49,149 nucleotides of DNA from Halogranum rubrum (GTDB lineage: Archaea; Halobacteriota; Halobacteria; Halobacteriales; Haloferacaceae): positions 1 through 49,149 of the forward strand of contig NZ_FOTC01000012.1 of the NCBI RefSeq assembly GCF_900114455.1, written 5' to 3'. A program made the translations under genes and the position numbers. Under the pieces are notes generated by a model. The model searched no databases. It was not told where the DNA came from and saw only the letters and a program-made list of their open reading frames with translations. Numbering within the stretch: the first letter of the stretch is position 1; each line of letters opens with the position of its first letter. This document shows positions 7,002 through 28,029 of the stretch, in pieces.

Positions 7002-7003
7002 GG

Positions 7004-8914: not shown

Positions 8915-8916
8915 TG

Positions 8917-9966
8917 TTAGAACCTCCCCGAATCGTCGCCGATCACGACGGGGATCGAACGAATCCGCTCGTTCCGCTGTCCGGCACTCGGCCCGTAGTG
9001 TGTTCGTTCGCCACTCCAGTACTCCTCCAGTAGGGCAGAGAGTTCGTCGGCTGAGACACGCTCTGCGTCACAACCTTCGAGGTCACGAATCCCGCTCTCG
9101 ACTGCCCGGAGTCGGCGTTCGAGTTCCTCTTTCTGTCGCTCGCGAATCTCCTCGTGAGTGAGGTTGGTGCTTTCAGCTCCCAATACTCGGATACACCCAC
9201 CAATCATTGGGAGGTCACAGAGCTTTGCCAGTGCACCGCGATCAGCGAGCTGCACTTCGCGGATACTGACGGGGATGAGAATGTGATACTCGCGAACACA
9301 CGTTCCACGACTCTCGAACTCTGTGGGGAACTTCTCTCGGTAGACGCTAATGATGTCGCCGAGCGCTGGGTTCTCGACGACGTCGGGATCATCCAACCGC
9401 TTGTCGTATCCGGCTGTGATTCGTTCAGGTTCGACGGGACGGGCCGTCGAATGAATCTGTAGGTCGAAGTCAAGTGCGTTCAGCACACTGCCGAAGGAGT
9501 TGGCCATCGATTCCCACTCTTCGTCAGTCGCGAGCGAGAGGTTCGCTGGACTCACTCGGAGGGCGGCGACGAGGTCACCATCAGTACGCTCAACCAGGTT
9601 CGACACTGGCAGAATGCGCTCAACCTGTGTGAGCGAGTCAGTCTGTTTGGCAGGTGTGTCAGCGACTGCGGTTTTAGTGTGTGCTGCTCGTGAAAACATA
9701 ATCATGTCCGCCAGCCACTGCTGGGGCGATTTGTGGGAAGGTGTGATGAAGACGAATGCGGCGGTCATCAACAGAATACCACCCGCTAGGAGAATACCGA
9801 CGACGTTCAGCCACTGCGGCGTCGCAAGGAGAATGAACCCACAAACAACCCCAGCAGGGATGAACAACTTCAGATCGTTGAGACTGTAGTCGATTTCGAT
9901 ACCGAAAATCTCGTCACTCGCTCCGAACTCATCGAGAATTCGCCGAGACGGATCGCGATGGCTCAT
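8917..9966 (-). CDS. VirB3/VirB4-N-terminal-like membrane protein
   Basis: The 349-aa protein has two adjacent membrane helices at residues 30-75, the PrgI/VirB3-like arrangement. A soluble domain follows containing VERILPVSNLVERTDGDLVAALRVSP, similar to the start of the VirB4/TraC N-terminal domain. The C-terminus is charged and ends GDDSGRF. Haloarchaeal conjugation clusters often carry this part as a separate protein ahead of the VirB4 motor, which fits the order here. Its ATG overlaps the stop of the upstream gene by 4 nt (ATGA), indicating translational coupling. Confidence 0.75.
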   Translation of the reverse strand: MSHRDPSRRILDEFGASDEIFGIEIDYSLNDLKLFIPAGVVCGFILLATPQWLNVVGILLAGGILLMTAAFVFITPSHKSPQQWLADMIMFSRAAHTKTAVADTPAKQTDSLTQVERILPVSNLVERTDGDLVAALRVSPANLSLATDEEWESMANSFGSVLNALDFDLQIHSTARPVEPERITAGYDKRLDDPDVVENPALGDIISVYREKFPTEFESRGTCVREYHILIPVSIREVQLADRGALAKLCDLPMIGGCIRVLGAESTNLTHEEIRERQKEELERRLRAVESGIRDLEGCDAERVSADELSALLEEYWSGERTHYGPSAGQRNERIRSIPVVIGDDSGRF

Positions 9967-11699
9967 TCGTTCTGCCCTCGCGTGTTGAACACTGTTTCTC
10001 TGCTCTCAGCATTCTGTTGGGCGTACGAATACGGACCACCGTACCGATTACTACTCACTACGTCTCGGACATCGTAGAACTGCTCGTCGTCGGCACCTTG
10101 GAGTACAAGTGTTTCCTCTGGGAATATCTTATCGAGCCGTTCGTATCCCGTATCAAGAGTCCAGTCACGATTTGAACTCGTCCCACCAACCCCTTTGAAA
10201 TCCCCGTTCGAGAGGAAGTATCCCGTTCGGTAGTCCTGTTCACTATCCAACTCTGATCGTGCTGCAACCTCGTTCAAGGAAACACCAGAGGGAATCCGGG
10301 TATCGCTGAAGGATTCGCTCGAAGTACCAGACGAACTCGAGGTACTCGAAGCGCCCACAGCACCCATACTCGTCGTCGCCGAGGTACCACTCCGGGCAAG
10401 CCCTCTCGAGGCACTCCCCAGAGCACCAGCAGCACTTGTTCCGGTCGCGCCAACAGCGCCAGTCGAACTCGTATTATCGCTGGAGAACGGCGAACCTTGG
10501 ATCGGATCGACACGTCCACTTGCAGCTGACCCGGCAGCACTCGTGGCTGCACTACTTGCCTTCCCAACTTTACTGGAGGCACTCGCGAGACTCGTCGCCG
10601 ACACGGCACCGAGCACACCAGCGGCCATCGATGAGAACGGACGCATCGAGCGCATGCCGACGAAGAGCATGATCGGCGATAGGAGTGCAATGACCCACAA
10701 ACACAACGTCAAGAGCGCATAGACACCGAGGCCGGGCACAATCGACGCCGGGCCAGGCATGGCACTTCGAGCGGCATTGATGACGGGATAGCCGAAGCCC
10801 AACACCAACGCTGTCGGGAAGGGCAAGAACGAGACGGTGACGAACAAGTCTCGGCCAATCTTTCCAACGTTGGAGACGATGCTGAGTGGCCCGAAGTCGA
10901 CCAGTGAGAGGGCGATGAAAATCGGGAGTGCGGGGGCGAAGATGAACACCGACACCCACGAGAGCCCAAAGACGAGCGCGATCATCAGGAACAACACACC
11001 CGAAGACAACCACACGAGAATAATTCCAAGGCCGCTCGCTGCAGCATTCCCTCCGACTGACCCGAGGTCGGCGACGAGGTCAGCGCCATCAGGGGCGACG
11101 GCGAGGATCATCCCCTGTGAGAGATGTAAGATGACGGCCGCCCACATCCACGAGGCGAGGATGAAAAACAACCCGAACCACCCTTTTTGACGCAAGGTCT
11201 TGCTCCGGTGGGCCGCCGCCGACCCACCCGGGAGAATCGTCGTGAGTCGAAGGACAAGCATCCCGAAACCCCACAAGGCGAGGCCGATTGGCAAGCCCTT
11301 CGTGAACCACATGTCGTAGGCGGTGCCCATCGGGGCGTTCGTCGGGCGCTCAACGAGTTCTATCTCGCCGTCGTCCATGGGGACGGGCCGAGAGACAAGG
11401 AACTCGACGGCCCACTCGGCGACGTCGCGAGCGAACTCGAGGAAGCCTTGGGCGATTGCGCGGACGGCGTCGACGACGCCGTTACACACCTGTCCGCTCA
11501 CGGGGTCGATGCCACTACAGTAGCCTGCTTCTTCGTTCGAGTCGCCGCTTTGCTCCTCACCAGTCGGTGTCTGTTCGGGAGTCGTGCCGAGTTGCGCGTG
11601 GCTTGTCGGCGTCGCCGCCGCAGCGAGCACTGGGACGACCCCAGCACTCACAACGAGCGTCAGTGCAACCACCACTGCGAGTCGTGAGTTACGTGTCAT
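9963..11699 (-). CDS. VirB6/TrbL-like channel protein with signal peptide
   Basis: The frame stays open upstream, but the ATG at 11697-11699 gives a clean signal peptide (MTRNSRLAVVVALTLVVSAG) and was chosen as the start, giving 578 aa. After a short acidic linker with two Cys (YCSGIDPVSGQVC) there are about six membrane helices between residues 140 and 390. A long Ser/Ala/Gly/Thr-rich, probably disordered stretch (about 390-490) and a charged tail follow. Topology and length match VirB6/TrbL inner-membrane channel proteins, which share little sequence identity, so the call rests on architecture and position between the pilin-like and VirB4-like genes. Confidence 0.72.
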   Translation of the reverse strand: MTRNSRLAVVVALTLVVSAGVVPVLAAAATPTSHAQLGTTPEQTPTGEEQSGDSNEEAGYCSGIDPVSGQVCNGVVDAVRAIAQGFLEFARDVAEWAVEFLVSRPVPMDDGEIELVERPTNAPMGTAYDMWFTKGLPIGLALWGFGMLVLRLTTILPGGSAAAHRSKTLRQKGWFGLFFILASWMWAAVILHLSQGMILAVAPDGADLVADLGSVGGNAAASGLGIILVWLSSGVLFLMIALVFGLSWVSVFIFAPALPIFIALSLVDFGPLSIVSNVGKIGRDLFVTVSFLPFPTALVLGFGYPVINAARSAMPGPASIVPGLGVYALLTLCLWVIALLSPIMLFVGMRSMRPFSSMAAGVLGAVSATSLASASSKVGKASSAATSAAGSAASGRVDPIQGSPFSSDNTSSTGAVGATGTSAAGALGSASRGLARSGTSATTSMGAVGASSTSSSSGTSSESFSDTRIPSGVSLNEVAARSELDSEQDYRTGYFLSNGDFKGVGGTSSNRDWTLDTGYERLDKIFPEETLVLQGADDEQFYDVRDVVSSNRYGGPYSYAQQNAESRETVFNTRGQNE

Positions 11700-11727
11700 G
11701 GAAGGGTGAATCGTGGCGTGAGTGCCC

Positions 11728-12189
11728 TCAGAAGAAGGGGACGAGACTGATACAGTCCGAGATGGACGTTCCCGTGAAGCCGATAAACATCTCGATGACG
11801 ACGGCAAACAGCGGCGTCGTGATCGCACTTGTTGCAGCACGATTCCGCCAATTTTTGAGCGTTTGGACGGATTGAGGGTCCTTCGGGAAGGCTGCAGCCG
11901 TGTGGAGGATGTACGCGAGAATCGACGCCCCAATCATGAGCGTCCCAACAATGAGTGGGGCAGCTTGATTGATTGTCTCGGCAATCGGAGTGCCACAAAC
12001 GCCGCTACCGACACCCTCCTGAGCAGCGACGGTCGTGCTCGCCGCGACGAGAAGAGCTCCGGTAGTCACAGCGGTCTGGCAGCCGACTCTACCAATTTGT
12101 GACATGAAGTGCTGTTCACTCGATGAACAGCTGTTCGATTCTTCTAATTCGAATGTCTCAGGCAAGACAGAGGTTGATTTCTTTGACAT
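11728..12189 (-). CDS. VirB2/TrbC-like pilin precursor
   Basis: A 153-aa protein, first in the conjugation operon. An internal ATG at 12103-12105 (MSQIGRVGCQTAVTTGALL) begins a typical signal peptide ending near AQEG and is an alternative start. The longer form adds 28 polar residues, and the start at 12189 is retained because an AT-rich TATA-like stretch lies directly upstream. The mature part has two hydrophobic helices (PLIVGTLMIGASILAYIL and ITTPLFAVVIEMFIGF) separated by a short basic loop, the hairpin layout of VirB2/TrbC pilins. Two Cys (in VCGTP and SDCIS) could form a disulfide. The next gene starts 28 nt downstream. Confidence 0.7.
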   Translation of the reverse strand: MSKKSTSVLPETFELEESNSCSSSEQHFMSQIGRVGCQTAVTTGALLVAASTTVAAQEGVGSGVCGTPIAETINQAAPLIVGTLMIGASILAYILHTAAAFPKDPQSVQTLKNWRNRAATSAITTPLFAVVIEMFIGFTGTSISDCISLVPFF

Positions 12190-15401: not shown

Positions 15402-16067
15402 TTAGGCGTCGTCTCGTTCCAACCGATACTCAAATACCATATACGAGACGGTGTCCTCGCTGAACTCATTTGCCCGCACTATAGAAGCACCCCCAAGCCC
15501 GACCGTGATTATAATCATCGGTAGCAGAGCAAGTTCTGGGACCGAGAGTTTGATGATATCTGCATCGTTGAGCATGACTGAGATAACGTAGAGGAATGCC
15601 AGCAAGAACATTGCAACGCCGGTCCCTCTCATCGCGAGATATAGTGCTTGTAGCCGGAGGGTCCGATTTCGCGAAGTTGACTCTAGTTGAGCAAGAATCA
15701 TCTTGTATATTCTCTTCCATGCATCATAGTTTGCATCAAGTTCGAAATCTTCTCGAACGTTTTCAACAAACTTGATGTCCATCGGAGTTGTTTCATACTC
15801 TGACTCTTCCTCTTCCGTGATTTGGCGCATCCGAGTCTCAAAGGCATCGCTGCCGCTAATTACGTATCCCCCAATCGTCTGAAGAAATTGTCCTGATGCG
15901 AAAGCCAGTATTACCCAAACGACCAAGTTCCCGATCTTCAGTTCGGTGGTGACGATGCCGCTGCCAACGTACGGTATCATCACCCCAATTAAAAATAATG
16001 CACCAGGAAAGAAGCTCGAGAAAATATCATATAAGTTGAACTGCGCAAATCCCTGCTGTCCCTCCAT
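15402..16067 (-). CDS. Hypothetical four-helix membrane protein
   Basis: A 221-aa protein with four hydrophobic segments: residues 17-37 (FPGALFLIGVMIPYVGSGI), 45-70 (GNLVVWVILAFASGQFLQTIGGYV), about 150-170 (GTGVAMFLLAFLYVISVML) and 178-195 (ELALLPMIIITVGLGGASIV). The central cytoplasmic loop (75-140) is charged. Pairs of helices around a soluble loop are seen in several bacterial phage-defence membrane proteins, but nothing here proves such a role. The upstream neighbour, a PadR-like regulator on the same strand, may control it. Confidence 0.7.
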   Translation of the reverse strand: MEGQQGFAQFNLYDIFSSFFPGALFLIGVMIPYVGSGIVTTELKIGNLVVWVILAFASGQFLQTIGGYVISGSDAFETRMRQITEEEESEYETTPMDIKFVENVREDFELDANYDAWKRIYKMILAQLESTSRNRTLRLQALYLAMRGTGVAMFLLAFLYVISVMLNDADIIKLSVPELALLPMIIITVGLGGASIVRANEFSEDTVSYMVFEYRLERDDA

Positions 16068-17332: not shown

Positions 17333-19807
17333 CTACTCTGCATCCTCTTCGGGAACCTTCATCATCTGCTCCAAAATAACGTCTGGGTGTTGGAACAGCT
17401 CGAATTCCTGTTCACCGCGGTCATAATCCACCATCCCGGTAGAGACAGCTACCGCTTCGATAACGTTTGCAACCTTCTGTTTCTCGATTCCCCTCTCCAG
17501 AATATTCTCATCTCCTAACACCATCCCGATAGCAGGCTTGTTAACCGGGTTTTTTGTCTGGGCGTCCCAACCAATATCCAAGATTTCTCTCATTAAGCCG
17601 GGCTCTGGCGTTTCCTGCCATATTTCTCCAACGTAATCGACCAGTTCGTCAGGGTGTTGGTCATTGGTGAGTATGTCTACGATTTGTTGGTGGGTAAACC
17701 GACGTCGTTTGTGTAACCGGAGCAGTTTCTCCATGGCTTCGTTAGTCAGTAGAGATGCGCTACCATCCATTTCCCGTAGAAGAGCGCTATCCTTGCCGTA
17801 TTTCCCATCCAACTGGAACTCTCGTGCAATCACAACGGCATGATCACACTCTGCTTCTTCTTTATGACGGGTGACTGTCGCCTCTTTCGCATCCTCGTGA
17901 TTCACGATGCCTTTCGAGCCCTTTGCTTCCATACAGAAGCGAAGGTTCTTGGAACCTGCTTGTGGTATCGTTAGAACCCCATCTGGTCGATCAGAAGCTC
18001 CCTCGTGTCGAGCAGATACGTTGATTTGCCGGAATACGTCGACAATCACCTCTTCATACCGCGACCCGCCCTCGAGAGAAGCATCATGAATCTCGTTGAT
18101 GTAGTACTCAATCTCATCTCGAATGTAACCAGCAGCACTACGCAGTGCATCGTCGGAAACCTCTTTGGAGATGTCTAACAGTTCTTGTTCGACACCGTGG
18201 TACTCCAGATACCCAGAGGCAAGCAGATTCCCAGCGACTGCTTCTCCAAACACTTGTTTGAATTCGTTGGACATCTTGTTACTCTCTTCGAGTGCTTTGA
18301 ACAGAGGATGTGATTCGTTGATAAAAATGGTTTGATCGTCCGAAGAATAGTACGTGATCTCATCAGATTCGTCATAAGAGCTGAATTTGACGTCGATGGA
18401 GCCAAGACCACCCTCAGGAAATCCATCGCTGGATAGTCCTCTGAGTCCTTGTGTCGCATCGAATGGAGCCAAAGTATTAAGTCGGGTTCCGAACGTACGC
18501 ACCGATTGTTCGTCTTCCTCAATCTCCTCCAGTTTCTGCTGGTCTAATCGGTTGGCCTTTCGACGGCAGTAATTGAACAACGCTTGAATTACCTCTCTTA
18601 CGAGATGTGTCTCGATGTGTTCCTCAGAGACCTGATTACGTTGAACAAGAATTGCATCGTCAAGGTCCGGTACCTCAATTTCCGCTAGAAAACGACCAAA
18701 GTCGCCGTGAGGTGGGTTGTCAAGTCCGAATAGCGGGTCTTCACGATTGACCAACTTTCCTTTCACGGTAATGCGGAACCCGTGATCTTTGAGACCTCTC
18801 TTCTTCCGTTTCCCCTTCGTTAAGAGATCTTCGTAGTAGGTTGCCTTCCCCGTGATCGGTCCTAATTCGGGGACTTCGAGTGCACGAACGTCCTCCTTAA
18901 CGTTATCATACTGGCTTGTTTCCCCGACACTGCACTCATACTTGCTCTCGGGTACGTCGTCCATGTTGTCGTGCTCGTCTCGTTCTTTCCAGAACGACTG
19001 GAGTCGGTTCTCGATTTCCCCTCGGACGTCCTCTTCCAAGAGATCAGCAGTGAAGCGTTCGTCAGTATCTGGTTCCCTTCTCGAGATTTTGCTGTTGTCC
19101 AGGGATACCTGGAACTGAGCAGAGAGAGGTATTGAGGTGCGAATCATCTGGTGAAGATACTGGGGTTGCAACGCCTTCCCAGTGTACTGTTCTTCGATGT
19201 CGTCGACGATGGCTAGGGTCCAAGAATCCCAGTCTTTCTCCCATGGGTTGGGAAGGTTTTTCTCTTCGAAGTACCCAGCAACTACATCTTGAGCCTCATT
19301 CAGCCCCATCTTGTGAACATTGAAGCTGGGAGGATTCCCATCATCCCGTTCCTTTATTTCTTCTTCTGAAACAGACACAATACGAACAGTACCATTCTTT
19401 GCTGCGATGTGTGTCAGTTTCCGCCCTAACGCAAATGCAGCGAGTTTCCCTACACCAAATTTGCCGATTTGCTGGCGGCCATGCTTCACTCGGTCTTCAT
19501 CTTCCTGATTGGCTTTAGGGCTCTTTGCCACACTCCAGAGCCACTCAAATCCACCCATATCCATAGAGGAGCCGTCGTCGAGAACAGCTAGATAGTCAGA
19601 CTCCGACTCAGGAGTGTTAATGTGGCATTCGCTTGCACCAGCGTCGTAGCTATTGCAAACGAGTTCTTCCACAGCTTTCCGTGGGTTCGTGTAAAGCTGT
19701 GATGAGACTTGTCGGATGATTTGGTAGCTAACGTCGACCTCGATCGACTTATCTTCTTGTTTACCTCTAGATACAAAATCGTCCTCCAAATCACGGGCAG
19801 TAGACAT
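17333..19807 (-). CDS. GHKL ATPase fused to a PD-(D/E)XK nuclease domain
   Basis: An 824-aa protein. The N-terminus is a GHKL (Hsp90/MutL/histidine-kinase type) ATPase: N-box AVEELVCNSYDAGAS (E48, N52), G1 box VLDDGSSMD (D77, G79) and G2 box GKFGVGKLAAF (115-125). A middle region (200-550) has no clear motif. Residues 585-665 carry a restriction-endonuclease core: RYEEVIVDVF, then RPDG (D609) and CMEAKGS (E627-A-K629), followed by a conserved-looking helix and CDHAVVIA. The fusion suggests an ATP-gated clamp that cuts DNA. It is divergent from the helicase-led operon across 102 bp, so both probably belong to one defence system. Codon use and base composition look less GC-rich than the conjugation operon. 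Confidence 0.85.
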   Translation of the reverse strand: MSTARDLEDDFVSRGKQEDKSIEVDVSYQIIRQVSSQLYTNPRKAVEELVCNSYDAGASECHINTPESESDYLAVLDDGSSMDMGGFEWLWSVAKSPKANQEDEDRVKHGRQQIGKFGVGKLAAFALGRKLTHIAAKNGTVRIVSVSEEEIKERDDGNPPSFNVHKMGLNEAQDVVAGYFEEKNLPNPWEKDWDSWTLAIVDDIEEQYTGKALQPQYLHQMIRTSIPLSAQFQVSLDNSKISRREPDTDERFTADLLEEDVRGEIENRLQSFWKERDEHDNMDDVPESKYECSVGETSQYDNVKEDVRALEVPELGPITGKATYYEDLLTKGKRKKRGLKDHGFRITVKGKLVNREDPLFGLDNPPHGDFGRFLAEIEVPDLDDAILVQRNQVSEEHIETHLVREVIQALFNYCRRKANRLDQQKLEEIEEDEQSVRTFGTRLNTLAPFDATQGLRGLSSDGFPEGGLGSIDVKFSSYDESDEITYYSSDDQTIFINESHPLFKALEESNKMSNEFKQVFGEAVAGNLLASGYLEYHGVEQELLDISKEVSDDALRSAAGYIRDEIEYYINEIHDASLEGGSRYEEVIVDVFRQINVSARHEGASDRPDGVLTIPQAGSKNLRFCMEAKGSKGIVNHEDAKEATVTRHKEEAECDHAVVIAREFQLDGKYGKDSALLREMDGSASLLTNEAMEKLLRLHKRRRFTHQQIVDILTNDQHPDELVDYVGEIWQETPEPGLMREILDIGWDAQTKNPVNKPAIGMVLGDENILERGIEKQKVANVIEAVAVSTGMVDYDRGEQEFELFQHPDVILEQMMKVPEEDAE

Positions 19808-19909
19808 GCTGATACCAATAAATTCTGGCCTATTTAAATTTGTGAGAAGTAATCCAATTTAGCCAACAACACGCTTAACTCGCCTCCGAAACCAGTTCTG
19901 CCAACAGCG
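19808..19909. promoter_or_regulatory. Divergent promoter of the defence island
   Basis: TATTTAAATT at 19831-19840 is a good haloarchaeal TATA box about 27 nt before the leftward GHKL gene, implying a very short or absent leader. For the rightward gene, TTAACT near 19875-19880 lies about 30 nt before the ATG. The two promoters share about 100 bp, which allows joint control. Confidence 0.5.
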
Positions 19910-21958
19910 ATGGCTTCCGACGGTACTACATTCGAATCCCTCGATCTCCCTCGTGTCCTCAACACGTCGACCACTGATTTTGTCGAAGAGTTCTATCAGC
20001 CTCTTTTGTCGCGTTCTGTCGAGTACAAACGGGGTGTTGGGTTCTTCACAACAAACTGGATAAAATCGGCAGCGAGAGGTATTGCAGAGCTGGCAAACAA
20101 CGACGGAACTGCCAAGTGGATTACTAGCCCCAAGCTCACCGAAGAAGACTGGGAAGCCATTAAGAAAGGCGAGGAGGCGCGTAGCGACGAAGTACTTAGA
20201 GACACCCTCCAGCAGACAATCACCAACTTACGTTTTGACCTCGAATACGACACGCGGAACGCTGTCGCTTGGATGATTGCTGACGGACTCCTCGAAATCA
20301 AGCTAGCCGTTCCAACCGAATCACTTTCTGGTGGCGACTTCCACGACAAGTTCGGTATCTTCTACGACACAGATGGCAACCGAGTTGCGTTCCATGGGTC
20401 CCAGAACGATAGCCAGCAGGCTCTACGGAACTACGAGGCTTACAGTGTTGATTGTGATTGGCTCGGTGAACGAGACGCAGAAGGCGTCGATACTCATGAA
20501 CTGCGCTTCGATGATCTTTGGAATGGACGGGACCCAAACGTCAATACGTACACTATTCCGGAAGGAGTAGCAGAGGATATCGCTGAACTCCGAGACTACG
20601 ACAACCGTCCATACGATACCCCGTTCGACAACCTAGACGACCCAGCCAACGGGGAGAAAGCGGGTCCAGAAATCACGCTCCGTGACTACCAACGCGAGGC
20701 CGTGGATAGTTGGTTCGAGAACGACTGCATCGGGCTCTTTCGGATGGCCACTGGCACGGGCAAAACGTTCACCGCTCTCGCGGCTCTCAACGAATATATC
20801 GACCAACACGACGGACCCGTTCTCTGCGTAATCGCTGTCCCAGTTACCCACCTCGCCACACAGTGGGCCGAAGAAATGGAGATATTCGGCCTCAAATCAC
20901 CGCGATTCCTCTTCGGCACAGCGAACAGCGACTGGAAAAGCGATCTCTCTCGGGTTGTGTCGAATATCAAGCTCGGGATTCGGGACCACGATATCGTCAT
21001 TACCACCCACAAAACCCTTAGTGAGGAGTACTTCCGCGAGAAGGTCAGTAGCATAGATGGCGATGTCATTCTTCTCGGCGACGAGGTCCACGGGCTCGGG
21101 TCGGAGGAGCAACGAAAGGGGCTCCTCGAGAACTACACTGCTCGCATTGGTCTCTCAGCAACACCAGAACGTCACTACGACGAAGAAGGCACAGAGTTCC
21201 TCTTGGACTACTTCGGCGGGACTGTGTACGAGTACACCCTCAGCGACGCGATTCCCGAATATCTCACTCCCTACGAATATGATCCGATCATTGTAGAGAT
21301 GACGGAAGACGAGTTAGAGGAGTATCGGGAAGAGTCTCGAAAGCTAGCAACTGCTGCTGGTAGTGACGATGTCGAGGACGAAATCGTGGAGAGGCTTGCA
21401 ATGAAGCGTGCTGCGATTGTCAAGGGCGCCGAGAACAAGTATCGGCATCTAAGACGCCTGCTCCAGAAGATGAACAACCCGGACCATCTCCTGGTATACA
21501 CAAACCCGAAACAGATTGACACTGTCCAACAAATTCTTAACGAAGAAGGCATCGTCCATCACAAGTTCACCTACGAGGAGGACGAAGAGACGCGTAAAGA
21601 GCTGCTTGAGGGATTTGATGAGGGCCGGTGGGACGCATTGGTGGCGATGAAGTGTTTGGACGAGGGTGTCGACGTCCCGGCGACTAGGCAAGCAATCCTG
21701 ATGAGCAACAGTGGAAACCCGATGCAGTTCATCCAGCGACGTGGACGTGTTCTTCGGCAATCTGAGGGGAAAGACAAGGCGACGATTTACGACATGGTCG
21801 TGGTGCCGTGGTTACACCCGCCCGAGGAGATCGGGACGTCGGAGCAGAACCTGCTCAAAAAAGAACTGGATCGATTTTCGGAGTTCGCTGAGAACGCAAA
21901 GAACCGTCACACCGCCTTAAACGTCATCGACAGCATCCGAGTAAAATACCGGATATAG
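19910..21958 (+). CDS. SF2 helicase with N-terminal phospholipase-D nuclease domain
   Basis: A 682-aa protein. Residues 25-200 form a PLD-like domain with one HKD-type site: FHDKFGIF (H145, K147) followed by HGSQN (S164, N166). Family members of this type dimerise or pair two half-sites to cleave phosphodiesters. Residues 255-680 are a superfamily-2 helicase: LRDYQREAV, Walker A MATGTGKT (279-286), GDEVHG (DExH, 389-394), LSATPER (415-421) and QRRGRVLR in motif VI. PLD-SF2 fusions are typical of restriction and DNA-repair loci. It is the first gene of the operon, and the next gene begins 68 bp downstream. Translocation coupled to strand cleavage is the likely activity. Confidence 0.88.
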   Translation: MASDGTTFESLDLPRVLNTSTTDFVEEFYQPLLSRSVEYKRGVGFFTTNWIKSAARGIAELANNDGTAKWITSPKLTEEDWEAIKKGEEARSDEVLRDTLQQTITNLRFDLEYDTRNAVAWMIADGLLEIKLAVPTESLSGGDFHDKFGIFYDTDGNRVAFHGSQNDSQQALRNYEAYSVDCDWLGERDAEGVDTHELRFDDLWNGRDPNVNTYTIPEGVAEDIAELRDYDNRPYDTPFDNLDDPANGEKAGPEITLRDYQREAVDSWFENDCIGLFRMATGTGKTFTALAALNEYIDQHDGPVLCVIAVPVTHLATQWAEEMEIFGLKSPRFLFGTANSDWKSDLSRVVSNIKLGIRDHDIVITTHKTLSEEYFREKVSSIDGDVILLGDEVHGLGSEEQRKGLLENYTARIGLSATPERHYDEEGTEFLLDYFGGTVYEYTLSDAIPEYLTPYEYDPIIVEMTEDELEEYREESRKLATAAGSDDVEDEIVERLAMKRAAIVKGAENKYRHLRRLLQKMNNPDHLLVYTNPKQIDTVQQILNEEGIVHHKFTYEEDEETRKELLEGFDEGRWDALVAMKCLDEGVDVPATRQAILMSNSGNPMQFIQRRGRVLRQSEGKDKATIYDMVVVPWLHPPEEIGTSEQNLLKKELDRFSEFAENAKNRHTALNVIDSIRVKYRI

Positions 21959-22026
21959 GGGATTCGTGAGACGAAGAACGTCTGCGAACGAATGTATTAT
22001 GATACGTGGGTATCACGAGTTAGGAC

Positions 22027-22230
22027 ATGAAGGACTCGGAGGTACACTCGCTCATCCTCGACCAAACGGATGAGATCGAGGAAGACGACTATCGCTCTTT
22101 TATTCGGGAGATTCTGAAGCACGAGCGGACGAAACTAGACCAGGATCGTCCGAAGTATGCGGAAAAGTACCGATCGCTAATCGATTCGTATGCTACTAAC
22201 GAAAGTCTTGGTGACTACGCTGACGAATGA
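22027..22230 (+). CDS. Small acidic helical protein in the defence operon
   Basis: A 67-aa protein, rich in Asp, Glu, Lys and Tyr and predicted to be mostly helical (DDYRSFIREILKHERTKL, KYAEKYRSLIDSYA). No family is recognised. Its stop overlaps the start of the SMC-like gene by 4 nt (ATGA), so the two are translationally coupled. A small partner subunit of the SMC-like ATPase is the simplest guess. Confidence 0.7.
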   Translation: MKDSEVHSLILDQTDEIEEDDYRSFIREILKHERTKLDQDRPKYAEKYRSLIDSYATNESLGDYADE

Positions 22231-24200
22231 ATAACATTCAGATCTTCGACATAGAGCTCAAAAACTACCGTCAATACCGAGGTATCGAGGAGATTGACCT
22301 CGCAACAACTCCGGACAAACACATCAATGTCATCGAGGGGCAGAACGGGTCGGGGAAATCTAACCTGCTGAATGCAATTACGCTTTGTTTCTACGACAAA
22401 GAACCTCATATCGACAACCAAGACAACCAGGGGTTAGGTGCCGATCCCTTAGTCAATCTCAAGGAACTAAGACAAATCGATGTGGGCGAGGCCGTACGTG
22501 GGTATATCGAGATTACTCTCGGGAAGCAGGAACCCCAGTACGTATTTACCCGAAAATTCCGAACCGCGAAAGTCGATGAGGACGAGTACAGCAGCGTCAC
22601 TGACGACCTCCAGCTCCGACAACGATTCGGTCCGGATTGGCAAAACGTCGACAACCCCAACATCCGGCTCCGAGAAATCCTACCGACACACGTCCACCAA
22701 TACTTCCTATTCGACGGCGAGCAGCTCGACCAGTTCTTCGAAGAAGGGTACACTGAGCGTGTGCAAGACGCCGTTCTCGACGTCTCTCATATTCAACTGC
22801 TGGAACGAGCAGTAGACCATCTCAAGTCGGTTCAGAAAGACCTCGAGAAGGAAGCCTCGGATGTCGAGGGGACGCCTCAAGACTTGCACGATGAGTACGA
22901 GGAAGCCCAAGAAACGCTTGAGGAGCTTGAGGAAGAAGAGAAGATACTCGAGGGGAACATCAGCGATGCGAACGAGGAGATAGAGGGTATCGACGAGGAG
23001 CTATCTGACAGTACCAACCCAGATGTTCGTGAGAAGCAGCAGCGTCGACGCTACTTGAACGAGCGCCTCGAGGACCGGAAGGAGGAGCTCCAGAACGCTC
23101 GTGAAGACGCCGCTGTGGCACTCGCTCGCGCGGGGCCAGTTGCATACAACAAAGATGCCTTGGAGTTCACGCTTGATCGGTTCCGCGAATGGGAGACCAG
23201 CGGTCAAGAACCACCAGATATCCCCGAGTGGTGGCTCGAACAGCTGCTCGAGAAGGGCAGATGTATCTGTGGGACCGACATCGAAACTGAGCAAGAGAAA
23301 CGTCGGCATCTCGAAGAATTCAAACAAACCGTTGCTGAGACAGCGACGCAGAGTGCCAACGGGAAGCGGAAGGTAGAGCGCGCGCTTGAGCGTGCAGATG
23401 ACATGGTCGATGTAGCGAAAGAACGGAAGGGACGCGTTGAGGACATCCGAGACGACATCGACGAAATCAATGAAGAACTGCGCGAAATCTCTGCTGAGTT
23501 GGAAAGTAAGAACATCCCGGACGACGTCGATGTGGCCGACCTCGAGAAACAGCGCAAGCGAATCGACGCTCGCATTAAGGACATGCGCGAGGAGCTCGGG
23601 CAACTTCGCGGGAAAATCGAGCAACAAAGCGAGGAAGTCGAAGAGCGCAGGAATAAGTGGAAACGAGAAGTGGAAAAGGAGAAGAAACACGATCAGCTTC
23701 TTCGGAAGATTCGTTTCGTTGAGAACGCCCGGGGCAAGGTAGAGAGTATCGAGACCAAGATTCTTGAGCAGGTCCGCGACGAGACAGAGACCTCACTTGA
23801 ACAGTACTTCAACGACCTCATCTGGAAGGACGAGCACTACGACATCGAGCTCACTGAGGACTACGAAGTGCGCGTTTACGGCCCGTCTGGAGAGAAAAAG
23901 CTCGGGTCGTTGTCGGCAGGTGAGCGGCAAGTGCTCGCGCTGTCGTTCATGTCGGGGCTTTCGAAGATTAGCGGGTTCTCTGCACCAGTTGTTATCGACA
24001 CTCCACTGGGGCGGATTTCGAGTAAACCGAAACGAAGAATCGCACAGAACGTCCCGAACTATCTGGAAAATAGCCAGGTGACGTTCCTAATGACCGACGA
24101 AGAATACACAAGCGAGGTCAAAGCCTTCCTACAGAATGATGTCGCCCACGAATACCATCTGGAGTACACTGATGAGGTAACGAAGGTGACGACAGAATGA
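22227..24200 (+). CDS. DndD-like SMC/Rad50-type ATPase
   Basis: A 657-aa protein with split ABC-type ATPase halves and long coiled coils. Walker A is GQNGSGKSN (38-46). Residues 200-300 and 370-510 are coiled coil, joined by a hinge containing RCICGTDIE, a CxCG hook reminiscent of the Rad50 zinc hook. The C-terminal half holds the ABC signature LSAGERQVLALS and Walker B PVVIDTPLGRIS, then FLMTDEEY. The DndD family acts in phosphorothioate-linked restriction, but no DndC (PAPS-reductase-like) gene is present here, so the protein probably serves a different DNA-sensing machine. Both ends overlap neighbouring genes by 4 nt. Confidence 0.85.
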   Translation: MNNIQIFDIELKNYRQYRGIEEIDLATTPDKHINVIEGQNGSGKSNLLNAITLCFYDKEPHIDNQDNQGLGADPLVNLKELRQIDVGEAVRGYIEITLGKQEPQYVFTRKFRTAKVDEDEYSSVTDDLQLRQRFGPDWQNVDNPNIRLREILPTHVHQYFLFDGEQLDQFFEEGYTERVQDAVLDVSHIQLLERAVDHLKSVQKDLEKEASDVEGTPQDLHDEYEEAQETLEELEEEEKILEGNISDANEEIEGIDEELSDSTNPDVREKQQRRRYLNERLEDRKEELQNAREDAAVALARAGPVAYNKDALEFTLDRFREWETSGQEPPDIPEWWLEQLLEKGRCICGTDIETEQEKRRHLEEFKQTVAETATQSANGKRKVERALERADDMVDVAKERKGRVEDIRDDIDEINEELREISAELESKNIPDDVDVADLEKQRKRIDARIKDMREELGQLRGKIEQQSEEVEERRNKWKREVEKEKKHDQLLRKIRFVENARGKVESIETKILEQVRDETETSLEQYFNDLIWKDEHYDIELTEDYEVRVYGPSGEKKLGSLSAGERQVLALSFMSGLSKISGFSAPVVIDTPLGRISSKPKRRIAQNVPNYLENSQVTFLMTDEEYTSEVKAFLQNDVAHEYHLEYTDEVTKVTTE

Positions 24201-24637
24201 GCGAGCAAAAATCCCACAAGTATGAGGAGTCCGAGCCGCGGCGTGACGTTCACATTGAGAAATCGAAGCGCAGTCTGTACGAGGACCTACGAACCAAAGA
24301 GACCTCGCCGTTCTACGACGTCGAGCTGCACGATCTGTTCTTGTTCGCCGTAAGTTACGGTCGTAAGAAGGCCGGACGAGTCGAGCTTGAGGGGAAGGAG
24401 CATGCGCTGTTCGGTCGGTCCTCTGCACTCCGTGAAGAGCAAGAGGGTATCATCGAGGCAGTTGCGGTGCGAGAAGAGCGTACTCTCGATGTTTTGCAGG
24501 ATAAGCGCCTCGTCTACACTATCGCTGAGGAATACGCGAATGGCGGAATTGACAAATTGCATGGACGGGTATTCGGGCCCGAAGATGATGCACTGAGTGA
24601 ACTAACGATAGAAGTCGTTGGAGAGTATGAAGGATAA
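24197..24637 (+). CDS. Uncharacterised protein coupled to the DndD-like ATPase
   Basis: A 146-aa protein overlapping the SMC-like gene by 4 nt. It reads LYEDLRTKETSPFYDVELHDLFLFAVSYGRKKAGR, then a polar middle, then VYTIAEEYANGGIDKL. The 'hydrophobic FxFAxxxG' segment followed by an EEYANGGI helix near the end recalls small accessory proteins next to DndD-type ATPases (the DndE position), but the sequence is not one I can assign. It may dock on the ATPase or on DNA. Spacing to the methyltransferase gene is 75 bp. Confidence 0.7.
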   Translation: MSEQKSHKYEESEPRRDVHIEKSKRSLYEDLRTKETSPFYDVELHDLFLFAVSYGRKKAGRVELEGKEHALFGRSSALREEQEGIIEAVAVREERTLDVLQDKRLVYTIAEEYANGGIDKLHGRVFGPEDDALSELTIEVVGEYEG

Positions 24638-24712
24638 CCATCTATCGGTTTCGCAGCAGACATTGCGAGAGTTACGAAGTACTCAAATGGCTAGAAAAAT
24701 CTTGTTCAAGCA

Positions 24713-26122
24713 ATGAGCCAAAATGAATTCGAAAACCAAGAGGAGCCGTTGACTATGGAGCGGCTCGACCCTGGAGTCCGAAAGCTTATCTCTATCATTA
24801 GCGAGCATATTGACGACGTCGACAACGTCTCCAGCCTCGACGAGTTCCTGGACGGAACCCACCAGCCGAAGGAACCGAGCACGCCGGACGTCTACAACTT
24901 TCTCTCTTCAAATCCGGATGTCGCCAAGAAACTCCACGGTGCAATCAAAGACGAGTTAGAGCACCATGGGAGTGTTACCGCTGAGGACATTCGGGCACAA
25001 CACGATGAGCGTCCCGATGTTGACGAACTGAAGGCGAAGGTTGAGCACGCGAATGCTCGCTACGTCATCCCGTCTGACGCTGACAAAGACGCCGACACTG
25101 AGAACTCCAAACGACTGGAAATCGAATCTGAATCAGTCGATCTTATAATAACGTCGCCGCCTTACTGGCGGAAGCGCAACTACGGCGTCGACGACCAGCT
25201 CGGTCAGGAGTCGGATCCAGACCAGTACATTGAGAACCTCGTCAAGGCGCTCGAGCACTGGCGCGCGTTCCTGCGCCCACACGGGTCGATATTCCTCAAT
25301 ATCGGCGACAGCTACAACAACAAGAGTCGTGTTGGAATTCCTGGCCGGTTCGTCCGTGCTGCGCAGGAAGCTGGTTGGACGATTCGTAACGACATCATCT
25401 GGGCAAAAGACAATGGCATGCCGTCCCCGGCAAAGGACCGACTGGTTCCACGCCATGAGCATATCATCCATCTCGTGTGGGATGCTGACGACTACTACTA
25501 CGACCTCCACGGATACGCCGAGGTCTTCGGGAACGGCTCGAATCCGGGAGACGTCTGGCGAATGAACCATGACCGCAACACCGGTGGACACCTCGCACCA
25601 TACCCGGAGGAACTGGTTCGGAGAGCGATCACGCTCGCTTGTCCGCACTCAGTGTGTACGAAGTGTGGTGTGGCGCGTGAGCGCAATCGGGTGAGAGGGA
25701 CGACCGAGTTGGACACGAGTCGGCCACAGGCTGAGCGAGCCCTTGAGCTGTATAATCAGTCCGATCTCGAAGAGCGACATATCAAGGCGGTTCAGGCGGT
25801 TGGGATTTCTGACGCTGGCAAGGCGAAGGAATTCCAGGATGGTGCGGGTGAGAACGCCAAAGACGTCCAAGAGCTAGCGAAGGAAGCGAAAGAGGTGCTA
25901 GGCGGTTACTTTAGAGAGTTTACGTTCCCTCAGTGGATTACTGAGGGATGGACTGAGTGCGACTGCGAGGAACCGGAGTATGGGCCTGGAATGGTGTTCG
26001 ACCCGTTCAGCGGCTCCGGAACCACCATCAAGGTCGCTAACGAACTGGGGCTCCATGCGTGGGGAACAGACCTCGATACCTCCAACTTCGACAAGAATCA
26101 GTCACTGTCACAGTATCAATAA
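24713..26122 (+). CDS. Class beta DNA methyltransferase (N4-cytosine or N6-adenine)
   Basis: A 469-aa protein. The first 130 residues are a helical extension with a possible winged helix (HHGSVTAEDIRAQHDE). The catalytic motif TSPPYW (148-153) comes first and the SAM-binding motif FDPFSGSGTT comes near the end, followed by WGTDLD. This order is that of beta-class enzymes. TSPPYW is typical of N4-cytosine enzymes, though some N6-adenine enzymes share it. A Cys pair (CPHSVCTKCG) and a later CDCEEP probably bind zinc. No recognition sequence can be read from the protein. Within this operon it is likely the self-marking subunit. Its TAA overlaps the next ATG by one base. Confidence 0.88.
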   Translation: MSQNEFENQEEPLTMERLDPGVRKLISIISEHIDDVDNVSSLDEFLDGTHQPKEPSTPDVYNFLSSNPDVAKKLHGAIKDELEHHGSVTAEDIRAQHDERPDVDELKAKVEHANARYVIPSDADKDADTENSKRLEIESESVDLIITSPPYWRKRNYGVDDQLGQESDPDQYIENLVKALEHWRAFLRPHGSIFLNIGDSYNNKSRVGIPGRFVRAAQEAGWTIRNDIIWAKDNGMPSPAKDRLVPRHEHIIHLVWDADDYYYDLHGYAEVFGNGSNPGDVWRMNHDRNTGGHLAPYPEELVRRAITLACPHSVCTKCGVARERNRVRGTTELDTSRPQAERALELYNQSDLEERHIKAVQAVGISDAGKAKEFQDGAGENAKDVQELAKEAKEVLGGYFREFTFPQWITEGWTECDCEEPEYGPGMVFDPFSGSGTTIKVANELGLHAWGTDLDTSNFDKNQSLSQYQ

Positions 26123-26724
26123 TGACTCAGTACGTCCTGAAACCCGAAGTAGTCAAAGATTGCTTTTGGCGGCTCGTTGAGTCGTCTATACACAGGCTCT
26201 TCCCCGGGTATCTGTGTCTTCAGCAGCAGTCCAATCTCGACGGGAGAACGATGGGTCTGTCGTTCCCATACAACGATTTCTTCGACACGTACTTTCGGGT
26301 TCTCGACGGTGACAAACCGTACCTAGTTCCCTTTACACAGGCAGAGAATCCAGCAGACGCTACACTGTGGTTCAACGCGAACGTAGCTGGGACGTATGCA
26401 CCATCGTCACTCAGAGCGAAATCACCGCTGATGCAAGTAGCGACCCTTGAAGAGGGCGGTCACAACTCGAAGTGGGGATTAGGTGATGAGCACTGGAAAC
26501 TTGCGCGCCATCACATATGTGACGGCGAGCAAATCCCTGTAGAGTCCGTCGCGGCGTACTTGTTCCGAGACTTCGCGTTTCAGACCGATGACCCGTCAGC
26601 GTATACGGTCGTATCTGCGTATACTGAGGAGTTTGGGTACGATCTTGGTGGGTCAGCATTCGCGCATCTGTACGAAACGGGCGACTCGAATATTACTGCG
26701 GAGAGCTTCGAAGAATATGAGTGA
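26122..26724 (+). CDS. Uncharacterised protein of the defence operon
   Basis: The ATG at 26122-26124 overlaps the methyltransferase stop (TAATG) and is preferred to an upstream in-frame start that would run into that gene. The 200-aa product is alpha/beta in appearance, with motifs FPGYLCLQQQSN, GLSFPYNDFFDTYFRV, HNSKWGLGDEHWKLARHHICDG and FGYDLGG. No catalytic signature is recognised. The DxxW/HWKLARHH segment, rich in His and Asp, could bind metal. Translation is coupled on both sides, so it belongs to the same complex or pathway. Confidence 0.7.
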   Translation: MTQYVLKPEVVKDCFWRLVESSIHRLFPGYLCLQQQSNLDGRTMGLSFPYNDFFDTYFRVLDGDKPYLVPFTQAENPADATLWFNANVAGTYAPSSLRAKSPLMQVATLEEGGHNSKWGLGDEHWKLARHHICDGEQIPVESVAAYLFRDFAFQTDDPSAYTVVSAYTEEFGYDLGGSAFAHLYETGDSNITAESFEEYE

Positions 26725-27199
26725 GCAAACCCAGATGCGGCTTGGTAACGAGAATTCGATTCTCTCGCGGGGGAGAGTTCGACGATTATCGCCCGAGGAT
26801 CTTGAGGTGGCTTCTCCCGAGGACCCCACCGAGCAATTAACCGATTCAGAGCGAGCTGGTGAGTTGCGAGAGTCAGCGGTTGAAGCGGCGTCAGCGGGTA
26901 TTGGTGCTGCTGTTGTAACTGCTGATGGTGATGTCTATACAGGTTGTCCAGTCGAAGGAAAGGGGTGGGGAGTGCACGCGATTGAGCTAGCAGTCTCGAA
27001 GGCTGTGTCTGAGGGTACAGGTTCGGTTTCTGAGGTTGCTGTGTTTTCTGAAGATGGAGAATCGGGGTTGTGTGGCCGGTGTCTTCAGGCGATAGCAGAT
27101 AGTCGAGACGATGACGTTACAGTGCAGATTGTGGATGCTGAGGATTGTGTGGAGAGATTCGATTTCGACGAATTGTACCCTGCACTTTGGAGGAAGTAA
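26717..27199 (+). CDS. Cytidine-deaminase-like protein lacking the catalytic Glu position
   Basis: The start at 26717 overlaps the previous gene by 8 nt; upstream in-frame codons belong to a shadow of that gene. The 160-aa protein has the cytidine deaminase fold pattern: IGAAVVTADGDVYTGCPVE, GVHAIELAVSKAVSEG (H87-A-I-E90) and LCGRCLQAI (C119, C122), ending LYPALW. The E. coli type reads VHAEQSAISHA at this place, so His and the two Cys zinc ligands are kept, but the catalytic Glu is Ile and a Glu follows one residue later. It may be inactive, altered in specificity, or a nucleotide sensor. It is the last gene of the operon, 27 bp from the convergent GIY-YIG gene. Confidence 0.82.
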   Translation: MSEQTQMRLGNENSILSRGRVRRLSPEDLEVASPEDPTEQLTDSERAGELRESAVEAASAGIGAAVVTADGDVYTGCPVEGKGWGVHAIELAVSKAVSEGTGSVSEVAVFSEDGESGLCGRCLQAIADSRDDDVTVQIVDAEDCVERFDFDELYPALWRK

Positions 27200-27226: not shown

Positions 27227-27538
27227 CTATCTCGGGTATATGGGTTCGAGTTTGTTGGTGAGTTTCTTTTCGATGGTTATTCGATGCGACTTTTCGCTCC
27301 CGGGCATTTGCATGATTCGCACCTCTGTGAGGAACTGTAGCTCTCTGGCTTCAACGGGAGAGTCGTTATCTCGTTGTACGTGACTGCGTAAATCAGATGA
27401 TTTGCTGTTGTTGTAGTGGCCGTTGATTCGGCTTCTGAGGTTGCTGGATTGACCTACGTATAGGCAGTTTTCGGTCCCTTTGACGAAAATTGCATATACG
27501 CCTTGCATATTTCCAGGTTCGATTGCATCCCAGCGCAT
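27227..27538 (-). CDS. GIY-YIG nuclease-domain protein
   Basis: A 103-aa protein that is a single GIY-YIG domain: GVYAIFVKG (first motif), CLYVGQSSNLRSRINGH (YVG motif with the catalytic Arg), and a Glu in IEKKLTNKLEP. Length fits stand-alone GIY-YIG proteins, which nick DNA or occur fused in homing endonucleases and UvrC. It is convergent with the defence operon, and a MITE lies 48 bp upstream of its start. It may be part of the island or a later arrival. Confidence 0.85.
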   Translation of the reverse strand: MRWDAIEPGNMQGVYAIFVKGTENCLYVGQSSNLRSRINGHYNNSKSSDLRSHVQRDNDSPVEARELQFLTEVRIMQMPGSEKSHRITIEKKLTNKLEPIYPR

Positions 27539-27585
27539 ATCGTCCCTTCTCTGTGGTTGTTGATTTGTGTTTTGCTGGCGGTTGG

Positions 27586-27826
27586 TTAATCCTACTTCCG
27601 CAGTTTAATCTGAACGTGTAGCACGGGTTTCCTGCAAGGCAGTGCAGTCTCTCGGTTTTTTATGGACGAATCGGGAAGACGTCACCGATTTGAACACGCT
27701 TCTCCGTGAGCCAACGTGAGAACTCACAGCCGCTGAAACGGCACAGACGCTGCGAAGAGACTTCCTCGGTAACACGCGAAAACGAGCTCGAAACGCCGCT
27801 CTACTAAATCGCGGAAGTAGGATTAA
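27586..27826. mobile_element. MITE with perfect 16-bp terminal inverted repeats
   Basis: The element begins TTAATCCTACTTCCGC (27586-27601) and ends with its exact reverse complement GCGGAAGTAGGATTAA (27811-27826), 241 bp in all. It holds no transposase. The outermost TTAA may be a target duplication rather than part of the element, since it is its own reverse complement. It is probably mobilised in trans by an insertion sequence with the same ends, which is not in this window. Confidence 0.75.
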
Positions 27827-28029
27827 TCAGTGAGCGCCTTGATGACTTTCAGACGCCGGAGTCTGGCTAGACATTGTTGTATTCATACAATCGGTACCTC
27901 GAAGCATTTTCAGTTGGTACCGGGTTTCGTTCGTCCCGCCAGTACCCGAGTGCCCAGCTCGGACTGTCCAGGTACTCAATAAGCGAGTGAAATTTTGAGA
28001 GGAGTATTAGCTATATCAGTTTATATGAC
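27827..28029. other. Spacer between MITE and next gene
   Basis: AT-mixed sequence with two copies of GGTACC (27892-27897 and 27915-27920) and no open frame of interest. Nothing else was identified. Confidence 0.3.

What the first reader, a model, noticed from the sequence alone, without database searches (positions are those of the whole stretch)
17333..27199. Composite DNA-defence island with no name I can give: GHKL-nuclease, PLD-SF2 helicase, DndD-like ATPase, methyltransferase, deaminase-like protein
Eight genes form two divergent units sharing a 102-bp promoter, and the seven rightward genes mostly overlap by 1-8 nt. The set combines a nuclease-fused GHKL ATPase, a PLD-helicase, an SMC-type ATPase with CxCG hook, a beta-class methyltransferase and three uncharacterised or altered proteins. 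It resembles parts of Dnd/Pbe phosphorothioate systems, DISARM and classical restriction-modification, yet lacks DndA/DndC, DrmA/DrmB and an R-M specificity subunit. Reading: a self-marking methylase with an ATP-driven sensing and cutting machine.
Basis: partly seen in the sequence, partly recalled or inferred. Interest (0 to 1): 0.85.

Follow-up and report, generated by a model that had tools for sequence, protein, structure and literature searches.

The report
Methylation-linked Pbe defence operon with pseudo-deaminase
This stretch of a salt-loving archaeon's plasmid-like DNA carries a known four-gene virus-blocking machine (PbeABCD) paired with a DNA methylase and with two little-studied helper proteins, one of which looks like a nucleotide-editing enzyme that has lost its active site.

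Summary
The genes are there as described, but the core has a name. Genes at 19910-24637 are a complete PbeABCD cassette in canonical order, the CxC ABC-ATPase/DndE-type system of Xiong 2019 and Rakesh 2024. DndC is absent from the host genome; the self-mark is probably N4-methylcytosine from a permuted TSPPY methylase, a pairing those papers already report. New here: two downstream genes, a 200-aa family (P200) and a cytidine-deaminase-fold protein, travel together. P200 is in 11 of 392 genomes of the order, in each followed by the deaminase-like gene, nine times with PbeABCD, twice without. The deaminase keeps its His/Cys/Cys positions but lacks the catalytic Glu in 11 of 11 and the NxE motif. 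In three genomes it is fused to a gyrase-A propeller. Its N-terminal tag also occurs on one McrB-like ATPase after a split P200. The GHKL gene is an accessory restriction-type gene: 7 of 7 full-length copies lie within about 5 kb of a methylase, only 2 of 7 beside Pbe. Function is inferred, not measured. Verdict: new variant of a known kind.

The parts
17333..19807 (-). GHKL ATPase + C-terminal PD-(D/E)XK-like protein, 824 aa; accessory restriction-type gene, not part of the conserved cassette
   Evidence: HATPase_c_3 1.6e-16; BbrUII/HgiDII REase model 2.5e-14 but far below its cut-off; full-length homologues in 7 of 392 genomes, each with a DNA methylase gene within about 5 kb; next to Pbe only here and in G134 (G383 cannot be judged, its contig ends just before PbeA)
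19808..19909 (.). 102-bp divergent intergenic region
   Evidence: ORF coordinates; contains an A/T-rich TTTAAA box seen directly, promoter function not tested
19910..21958 (+). PbeA: HKD (PLD) nuclease + SF2 DEVH helicase, 682 aa
   Evidence: PADLOC PDLC02707 5.6e-235; TIGR04095 7e-136, below its cut-off; HDKFGIFYD...HGSQN
22027..22230 (+). PbeB-position small protein, 67 aa
   Evidence: size and place of PbeB (66 aa); homologues at the same place in 15 of the 16 fetched clade genomes other than the window's (none seen in L046)
22227..24200 (+). PbeC: CxC-hook ABC ATPase, 657 aa
   Evidence: PADLOC PDLC02723 1027.8 bits; CICG hook and GQNGSGKS
24197..24637 (+). PbeD: DndE-type partner, 146 aa
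   Evidence: TIGR04062 dnd_assoc_4 1e-9, 38.7 bits, below the 74.25 cut-off; size and place of PbeD (152 aa)
24713..26122 (+). permuted TSPPY DNA methylase, probable N4-cytosine, 469 aa
   Evidence: N6_N4_Mtase 3.3e-37; PDLC03316 MTase_II 5.6e-120; TSPPY before DPFSGSGTT
26122..26724 (+). P200: 200-aa protein of no named family
   Evidence: no Pfam, PADLOC or NCBIfam match at E 0.1; in 11 of 392 genomes of the order; alignment A1
26717..27199 (+). pseudo-cytidine deaminase with an N-terminal tag, 160 aa
   Evidence: deaminase fold by sequence and Foldseek E 1.5e-9; HAIE...CGRC where other haloarchaeal copies have HAEE...CGMC; N-terminal tag shared with a McrB-like protein

Best explanation
The locus is a plasmid-borne, methylation-type PbeABCD defence system. 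The permuted TSPPY methylase marks host DNA (N4-methylcytosine is inferred from TSPPY). PbeC, a CxC-hook ABC ATPase, and PbeD, the DndE-like partner, scan DNA for the target site. If the mark is missing, PbeA is engaged: an SF2 motor carrying an HKD nuclease, which translocates and cuts or blocks the invading DNA. PbeB is a small regulator. P200 and the catalytically altered deaminase act together as an adaptor that ties the marked or unmarked site to the restriction engine: P200 goes with the mark, and the tagged partner (deaminase fold, deaminase fold plus gyrase-A propeller, or McrB) goes with DNA or the effector. The divergent GHKL-nuclease is a second, independent cutter using the same mark. 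Shown: gene identities, order, recurrence, loss of the catalytic Glu, the fusions, absence of DndC. Inferred: the base modified, direction of discrimination, cutting, zinc binding and the adaptor role.
For: Core identity: with the published description (passages of PMC6459918; sections 16, 17, 24 of PMC10853773). Methylation instead of phosphorothioation: no DndC in the host; of the 17 genomes with this PbeC clade (own included), 15 have an N6/N4 methylase in or near the cassette, G296 has DndC beside it, G060 has neither. P200 and the deaminase-like gene as a unit: adjacent in 11 of 11 genomes; P200-bearing PbeC fall on one side of a branch (1 change, support 81/72); Fisher 2.3e-12. Adaptor reading: the methylase-P200-deaminase trio stands without Pbe in G039 and G123; the N-terminal tag recurs on a McrB-like AAA_5 protein after a split second P200 (E 0.0049 in 11016 ORFs; AAA_5 4.5e-19, McrC-like PF10117 2.2e-36). 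DNA handling by the partner: gyrase-A propeller fused in 3 of 11 (PF03989, best 1.1e-62).
Against: No activity has been measured. The published PbeABCD (with Dnd) showed no viral DNA cleavage, so 'cutting' may be wrong. The adaptor role of P200 has no structural support: its model failed (pLDDT 35). The shared tag rests on one McrB-like protein. The second P200 of G244 is in two halves near the ends of two contigs that do not overlap, so it may be broken and the contigs may not be neighbours. One clade member (G060) has neither an N6/N4 nor a C5 methylase near the Pbe genes, nor DndC (other methylase families were not searched). Eight of the 17 clade members lack P200 altogether, so PbeABCD can do without it. 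PbeD is identified by a below-cut-off match, place and size. The motif that suggests N4 rather than N6 methylation is recalled knowledge.
Confidence: 0.7

Rival explanations
1. P200 is already known under another name (the MTaX1 domain that Rakesh 2024 places beside methylases in CxC ABC-ATPase systems and in several restriction-modification systems), so the whole locus is an ordinary methylase-type CxC system plus a stray deaminase gene.
For: PMC10853773 says methylase-bearing CxC systems often have an MTaX1 gene; P200 sits with the methylase and a split copy lies upstream of a McrBC-type set.
Against: The deaminase-like gene is next to P200 in 11 of 11 genomes, with invariant H, E, L and C-x2-C positions, so it is not a decaying stray; 'deaminase' and 'gyrase' do not occur in the main text of that paper. 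P200 was found only in the window's order here. The MTaX1 definition (Krishnan 2020, recalled) is not held, so identity could not be tested.
Confidence: 0.35
2. Suicide model: the system does not cut invaders but, on sensing a virus, damages host DNA or arrests the cell; PbeB and the deaminase-like protein are inhibitors or sensors of viral nucleotide metabolism.
For: Rakesh 2024 proposes this alternative for PbeB-bearing systems; Xiong 2019 saw replication blocked without cleavage; a deaminase fold could sense nucleotides.
Against: The NxE motif (substrate-binding role recalled) is absent in 11 of 11 and present in the 11 other haloarchaeal copies looked at, so binding of free cytidine in the usual way is unlikely; HKD residues of PbeA are intact here, which fits cutting of either DNA.
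Confidence: 0.25
3. Two unrelated restriction systems happen to be side by side on a plasmid: a GHKL-type restriction enzyme and a methylation-type Pbe, with the methylase serving either one.
For: The GHKL gene is beside Pbe in only 2 of its 7 full-length occurrences, each time with a methylase within about 5 kb; it is divergent and separate from the rightward operon.
Against: In G123 the GHKL gene stands near the methylase-P200-deaminase trio without Pbe, so 3 of 7 copies are with this trio; more than loose neighbourhood, but few cases.
Confidence: 0.45

Closest known systems
DndCDEA-PbeABCD phosphorothioate-dependent defence (Haloterrigena jeotgali A29; Xiong et al. 2019, PMC6459918)
   Same: All four Pbe genes, same order, matching sizes (PbeB 66 vs 67 aa, PbeD 152 vs 146 aa), halophilic archaea
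   Different: No DndC in the genome; a methylase, P200, a pseudo-deaminase and a divergent GHKL gene instead of dndCDEA
CxC ABC-ATPase/DndE systems with permuted cytosine-N4 methylases (Rakesh, Aravind, Krishnan 2024, PMC10853773)
   Same: CxC-hook ATPase, DndE cognate, HKD+SF2 helicase, small protein, permuted TSPPY methylase
   Different: Main text mentions no deaminase, gyrase, propeller or McrB (supplements not seen); identity of P200 with MTaX1 untested
Cytidine deaminases of the B. subtilis/mouse type (1jtk, 1ux1, 2fr5) and haloarchaeal copies of it
   Same: Fold; His/Cys/Cys positions of the haloarchaeal copies
   Different: Catalytic Glu position is I, V or L in 11 of 11; NxE motif absent; N-terminal tag added; gyrase-A propeller in 3 of 11
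BbrUII/HgiDII-type restriction enzymes
   Same: N-terminal match (residues 25-245) of the GHKL protein; methylase nearby
   Different: Score far below the family cut-off (52.8 vs 550 bits); the rest does not match
DISARM
   Same: Helicase and PLD functions, methylase
   Different: No Drm model among the PADLOC matches shown

Membership tests
PbeABCD cassette | PbeA: HKD/PLD nuclease fused to SF2 helicase | tested here: met
   PDLC02707 5.6e-235; HxK...D...GSxN
PbeABCD cassette | PbeC: CxC-hook ABC ATPase | tested here: met
   PDLC02723 1027.8 bits; CICG
PbeABCD cassette | Small PbeB between PbeA and PbeC | tested here: met
   67 aa at the same place; homologues in place in 15 of 16 other clade genomes; no PADLOC model matched, so met by place, size and recurrence
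PbeABCD cassette | PbeD, DndE cognate, after PbeC | tested here: inconclusive
   TIGR04062 1e-9 but below cut-off; place and size fit; no PADLOC match
PbeABCD cassette | Gene order A-B-C-D | tested here: met

Phosphorothioate-dependent DndCDEA-PbeABCD | DndC (PT modification) | tested here: not met
   no TIGR03183 match in the whole genome of 4.57 Mb; DndA not searched
Methylase-type CxC ABC-ATPase system (Rakesh 2024) | Permuted cytosine-N4 methylase in the operon | tested here: met
   N6_N4_Mtase 3.3e-37; TSPPY before FSGSG; which base is modified is not testable here
Methylase-type CxC ABC-ATPase system (Rakesh 2024) | MTaX1 domain gene | not testable with these tools
   defining paper not held; P200 is the candidate
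Active cytidine deaminase | [HC]xE ... CxxC active site | tested here: not met
   HAIE...LCGRC; catalytic Glu missing in 11 of 11 P200-linked copies, present in the 11 other copies looked at
DISARM | DrmA/DrmB | tested here: not met
   no Drm model in the PADLOC matches shown for ten window proteins (at most 25 rows a protein)
Type I R-M | HsdS specificity subunit | tested here: not met
   no specificity-subunit match shown among ten window proteins
BbrUII/HgiDII restriction enzyme | full-length family match | tested here: not met
   52.8 bits against a cut-off of 550

The most novel reading that the evidence does not exclude
Methylase + P200 + a tagged partner is a modular 'mark-to-engine' coupler of haloarchaea: one methylase mark serves interchangeable restriction engines (PbeABCD, a GHKL pair, McrBC-type), each tied to the mark through P200 and a short N-terminal tag. 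In the Pbe form the tagged partner is a deaminase turned into a non-catalytic zinc-binding, DNA-wrapping subunit (with a gyrase-A propeller in some), that reads or presents the cytosine mark.
Probability: 0.25. Interest if true: 0.78.

Novelty: new variant of a known kind. Interest (0 to 1): 0.52.

Why it matters
In 2019 only 42.1% of PbeAC pairs had dndCD nearby, and whether the rest work with methylases was left open. This clade is a clean test case: 15 of 17 members have an N6/N4-type methylase and one has DndC. It also adds two conserved subunits whose role is unknown, one a pseudo-deaminase that in some species carries a gyrase-type DNA-wrapping domain. That gives a direct handle on how such systems link a base mark to a DNA-scanning ATPase, and an unusual case of a housekeeping-type enzyme fold reused in defence.

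Tried and rejected
DISARM and Type I R-M: no matching defining subunits shown. DndFGH: no match shown there either. Phosphorothioation: DndC absent. A fold for P200: AlphaFold2 with six sequences (window and five loci of the search for related loci) failed (mean pLDDT 35), so no fold search was made with it. P200 against PDB sequences gave Scone-E/R at E 6.5e-4 and 0.026, which are three 5-7-bit repeat hits summed in a triplicated protein; rejected. P200 against Pfam at E up to 10: RteC in 3 of 10 members, best E 0.023, taken as chance. P200 in viral contigs and phage records: none; in genome contigs 5 loci, all haloarchaeal, but these scans use strict peptide patterns. The one P200 hit outside the order among 294 genomes of the phylum (G418, E 0.002, 54 residues) lies in a 389-aa ORF that I read, from recall and no call, as an inositol-phosphate-synthase-like gene; rejected. 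P0004 alone against 392 genomes hits some deaminase in 376, so it is not informative by itself; seven or more genomes have a second copy without P200 that I did not look at. A tree of pseudo versus other deaminases puts them on two sides of one branch in 88% of bootstraps, but with very long branches; not relied on. In one search the pattern caught the wrong place for G157; its true stretch also lacks NxE. The sigma-70 scan is not meaningful for an archaeon. GHKL protein against PDB sequences: nothing at E 0.01. Rows dropped: G383 PbeA and PbeC are split between two contigs and were left out of the tree and the motif counts; G244's second, split P200 was left out of the alignments.

The HKD pattern was complete in 13 of 16 PbeA looked at; G092 and G296 lack the Asp position and G197 has SS for GS. 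Only the window's copy bears on the verdict.
Full report
What is there. The window is the whole 49,149-bp contig C15 of a 4.57-Mb genome in 17 contigs. The genome carries no name; that it is a haloarchaeon (order Halobacteriales) is inferred from its relatives named. Conjugation-type genes (TrbL/VirB6, TraG P-loop, TraD/HerA-like) and an Orc1/Cdc6 gene on the contig suggest a plasmid. The divergent gap is 102 bp; four of six rightward junctions overlap by 1-8 nt.

Core identity. PADLOC-DB names ORF 19910-21958 PbeA (5.6e-235) and ORF 22227-24200 PbeC (1027.8 bits). NCBIfam gives dnd_restrict_1 (7e-136), DndD (1.8e-62) and, for the 146-aa protein, dnd_assoc_4 (1e-9), all below their cut-offs. 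Xiong et al. 2019 (PMC6459918, passages seen) give PbeB 66 aa and PbeD 152 aa in a conserved four-gene cassette; here they are 67 and 146 aa in that order. Rakesh et al. 2024 (PMC10853773; abstract, passages and sections 16, 17 and 24 seen) re-describe Pbe as the CxC ABC-ATPase system: PbeA is an HKD nuclease fused to an SF2 helicase, PbeB a small protein, PbeC the CxC ATPase, PbeD the DndE cognate. The window's proteins show the CICG hook and Walker A and HDKFGIFYD...HGSQN. The four-gene core is therefore PbeABCD.

Self-mark. DndC has no match in the host genome. The methylase has TSPPY before DPFSGSGTT, the permuted order; TSPPY pointing to N4-cytosine is recalled knowledge. Both papers report methylases near Pbe: at 155 of 320 Pbe loci without dndCD, and permuted cytosine-N4 methylases. 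I searched 392 genomes of the order with PbeC: 49 match at E 1e-20, and 17 of them (own included) form a close set at 39% identity or more, the next being at 28%. Of these 17, 15 have an N6/N4 methylase in or near the cassette (for six, for nine), G296 has DndC beside Pbe, and G060 has neither these nor a C5 methylase nearby (other methylase families not searched).

The new part. ORFs 26122-26724 (P200) and 26717-27199 have no named counterpart except that the second has a deaminase fold (Pfam 4.5e-6; B. subtilis CDA 2.1e-11; Foldseek mouse CDA 1.5e-9 on a model with mean pLDDT 74). P200 occurs in 11 of 392 genomes. In all 11 a deaminase-like gene follows it, overlapping or within about 20 bases. 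Nine of the 11 are with PbeABCD: seven in the order PbeABCD-methylase-P200-deaminase-like (one of them, G383, split over two contigs), two with the methylase after the pair. The other eight members of the PbeC clade have no P200. In G039 and G123 the methylase-P200-deaminase-like trio stands without Pbe, beside a 685-715-aa protein (weak HATPase_c_3 match in G123, E 0.0074, below cut-off; none in G039) and a 247-aa protein. On a PbeC tree the eight P200 loci with an unbroken PbeC fall on one side of one branch (support 81/72; 16 clade members and three outsiders). This fits one gain followed by inheritance, with moderate support only.

A pseudo-deaminase. Other haloarchaeal deaminases, taken from the best-scoring loci, read like CNIENANYSNSLHAEEVAV...TPCGMC; all 11 looked at keep the catalytic Glu and the NxE motif. 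The window's protein reads CPVEGKGWGVHAIELAV...LCGRC. The H, C and C positions are kept in 11 of 11 P200-linked copies and the Glu position is I, V or L in 11 of 11 (in G039 and G123 a Glu stands one place earlier, at H+1). NxE is absent in 11 of 11. Deamination by the known mechanism is therefore unlikely. In G197, G244 and G157 the protein runs on for about 500 residues into a gyrase-A C-terminal propeller (PF03989, E 1.3e-56 to 1.1e-62, five or six stretches), a DNA-wrapping fold by established knowledge.

A shared tag. The first ~30 residues (roughly N-x2-R-S-x3-V-R-x-L-x4-L) are conserved in the 11 deaminase-like proteins. A profile built from nine of them finds, among 11,016 ORFs of the window and 29 loci, the 11 (nine of them by construction) and then one more protein above noise (E 0.0049; next 1.5). 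That one is a McrB-like AAA_5 ATPase (4.5e-19) right after a P200 half on contig C64 of G244 and followed by McrC-like (2.2e-36), PD-(D/E)XK and UvrD genes. The N-terminal half of a second P200 lies after the methylase near the end of contig C44 of the same genome, and the halves fit (residues 2-74 and 72-199). The contig ends do not overlap, so an insertion or gap between them is likely and adjacency is unproven. If they adjoin, one methylase there has two P200 genes leading to two engines.

The GHKL gene. Full-length homologues exist in 7 of 392 genomes (two more match only in the ATPase domain). Each has a DNA methylase within about 5 kb: window, G134 and G123 the trio's methylase; G200 and G067 N6/N4 type; G320 N6/Eco57I type and G295 C5 type. 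A DG/DA...EAK pattern, PD-(D/E)XK-like, is seen in six of seven (by eye). It is best read as a separate restriction enzyme that uses whatever mark is at hand.

Mechanism and limits. I propose mark (methylase), scan (PbeC/PbeD), act (PbeA), with P200 and the pseudo-deaminase as the coupling. Only the anatomy is shown. Xiong 2019 saw no cleavage of viral DNA, so 'act' may be a block. P200 may be the MTaX1 domain of Rakesh 2024; the defining paper (recalled: Krishnan 2020) is not held.

Is it in print? Searches of the held library for PbeABCD (10 papers), MTaX1, CxC ABC/methylase/deaminase/DndE, gyrase/deaminase/restriction-modification/haloarchaea/phosphorothioate, PbeA/PbeC with methyltransferase and deaminase/gyrase/antiphage/methyltransferase/beta-pinwheel showed no paper on a pseudo-deaminase or gyrase propeller in Pbe loci, as judged from listings, from term counts in PMC10853773 and from passages of PMC12707154. 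Supplements, subscription papers and preprints are not covered.

Named carriers of P200: Halovivax asiaticus, Halobiforma nitratireducens, Haloarcula amylovorans, Halorubrum salsamenti, Natronomonas aquatica, and plasmids of Haloprofundus sp. MHR1 and Salarchaeum japonicum.

Noticed in passing
window 366-11933 and 43581-44846: NrS-1-polymerase-type domain protein, TraD/HerA-like, TraG P-loop and TrbL/VirB6-like genes, and an Orc1/Cdc6 gene: the contig looks like a conjugative-type plasmid.
   Followed up: partly
window 27227-27538 (-): Small GIY-YIG protein convergent with the operon end; Rakesh 2024 notes such nucleases at the borders of Dnd loci, but no homologue was found in the 20 related stretches searched.
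   Followed up: partly
window 15402-16067 (-): 221-aa protein with a weak match to PADLOC Csx27 (3.1e-5); looks membrane-bound by eye.
   Followed up: no
window 27583-27607 and 27805-27829: 25-nt inverted repeat, 88% complementary, arms 197 nt apart, just outside the operon; could be a small mobile-element remnant.
   Followed up: no
L077 11908-14864 and L078 5417-8280: A 685-715-aa protein plus a 247-aa protein of no family, upstream of the methylase-P200-pseudo-deaminase trio in G039 and G123: a possible further restriction engine.
   Followed up: partly
L079 1-8685: McrB-like, McrC-like, PD-(D/E)XK and UvrD genes after a P200 half; the McrB-like protein carries the tag of the pseudo-deaminases.
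   Followed up: partly
L082 6099-13301: GHKL homologue between an Eco57I-type methylase and a KAP-family P-loop NTPase.
   Followed up: no
L037, L038, L039, L043, L044 (G088, G337, G346, G263, G228): Sister Pbe loci without P200 (G337, G346, G263, G228) carry a ~970-995-aa open frame with an N6/N4 methylase domain near Pbe, plus a ~520-550-aa one: probably a different methylase set for the same engine.
   Followed up: no
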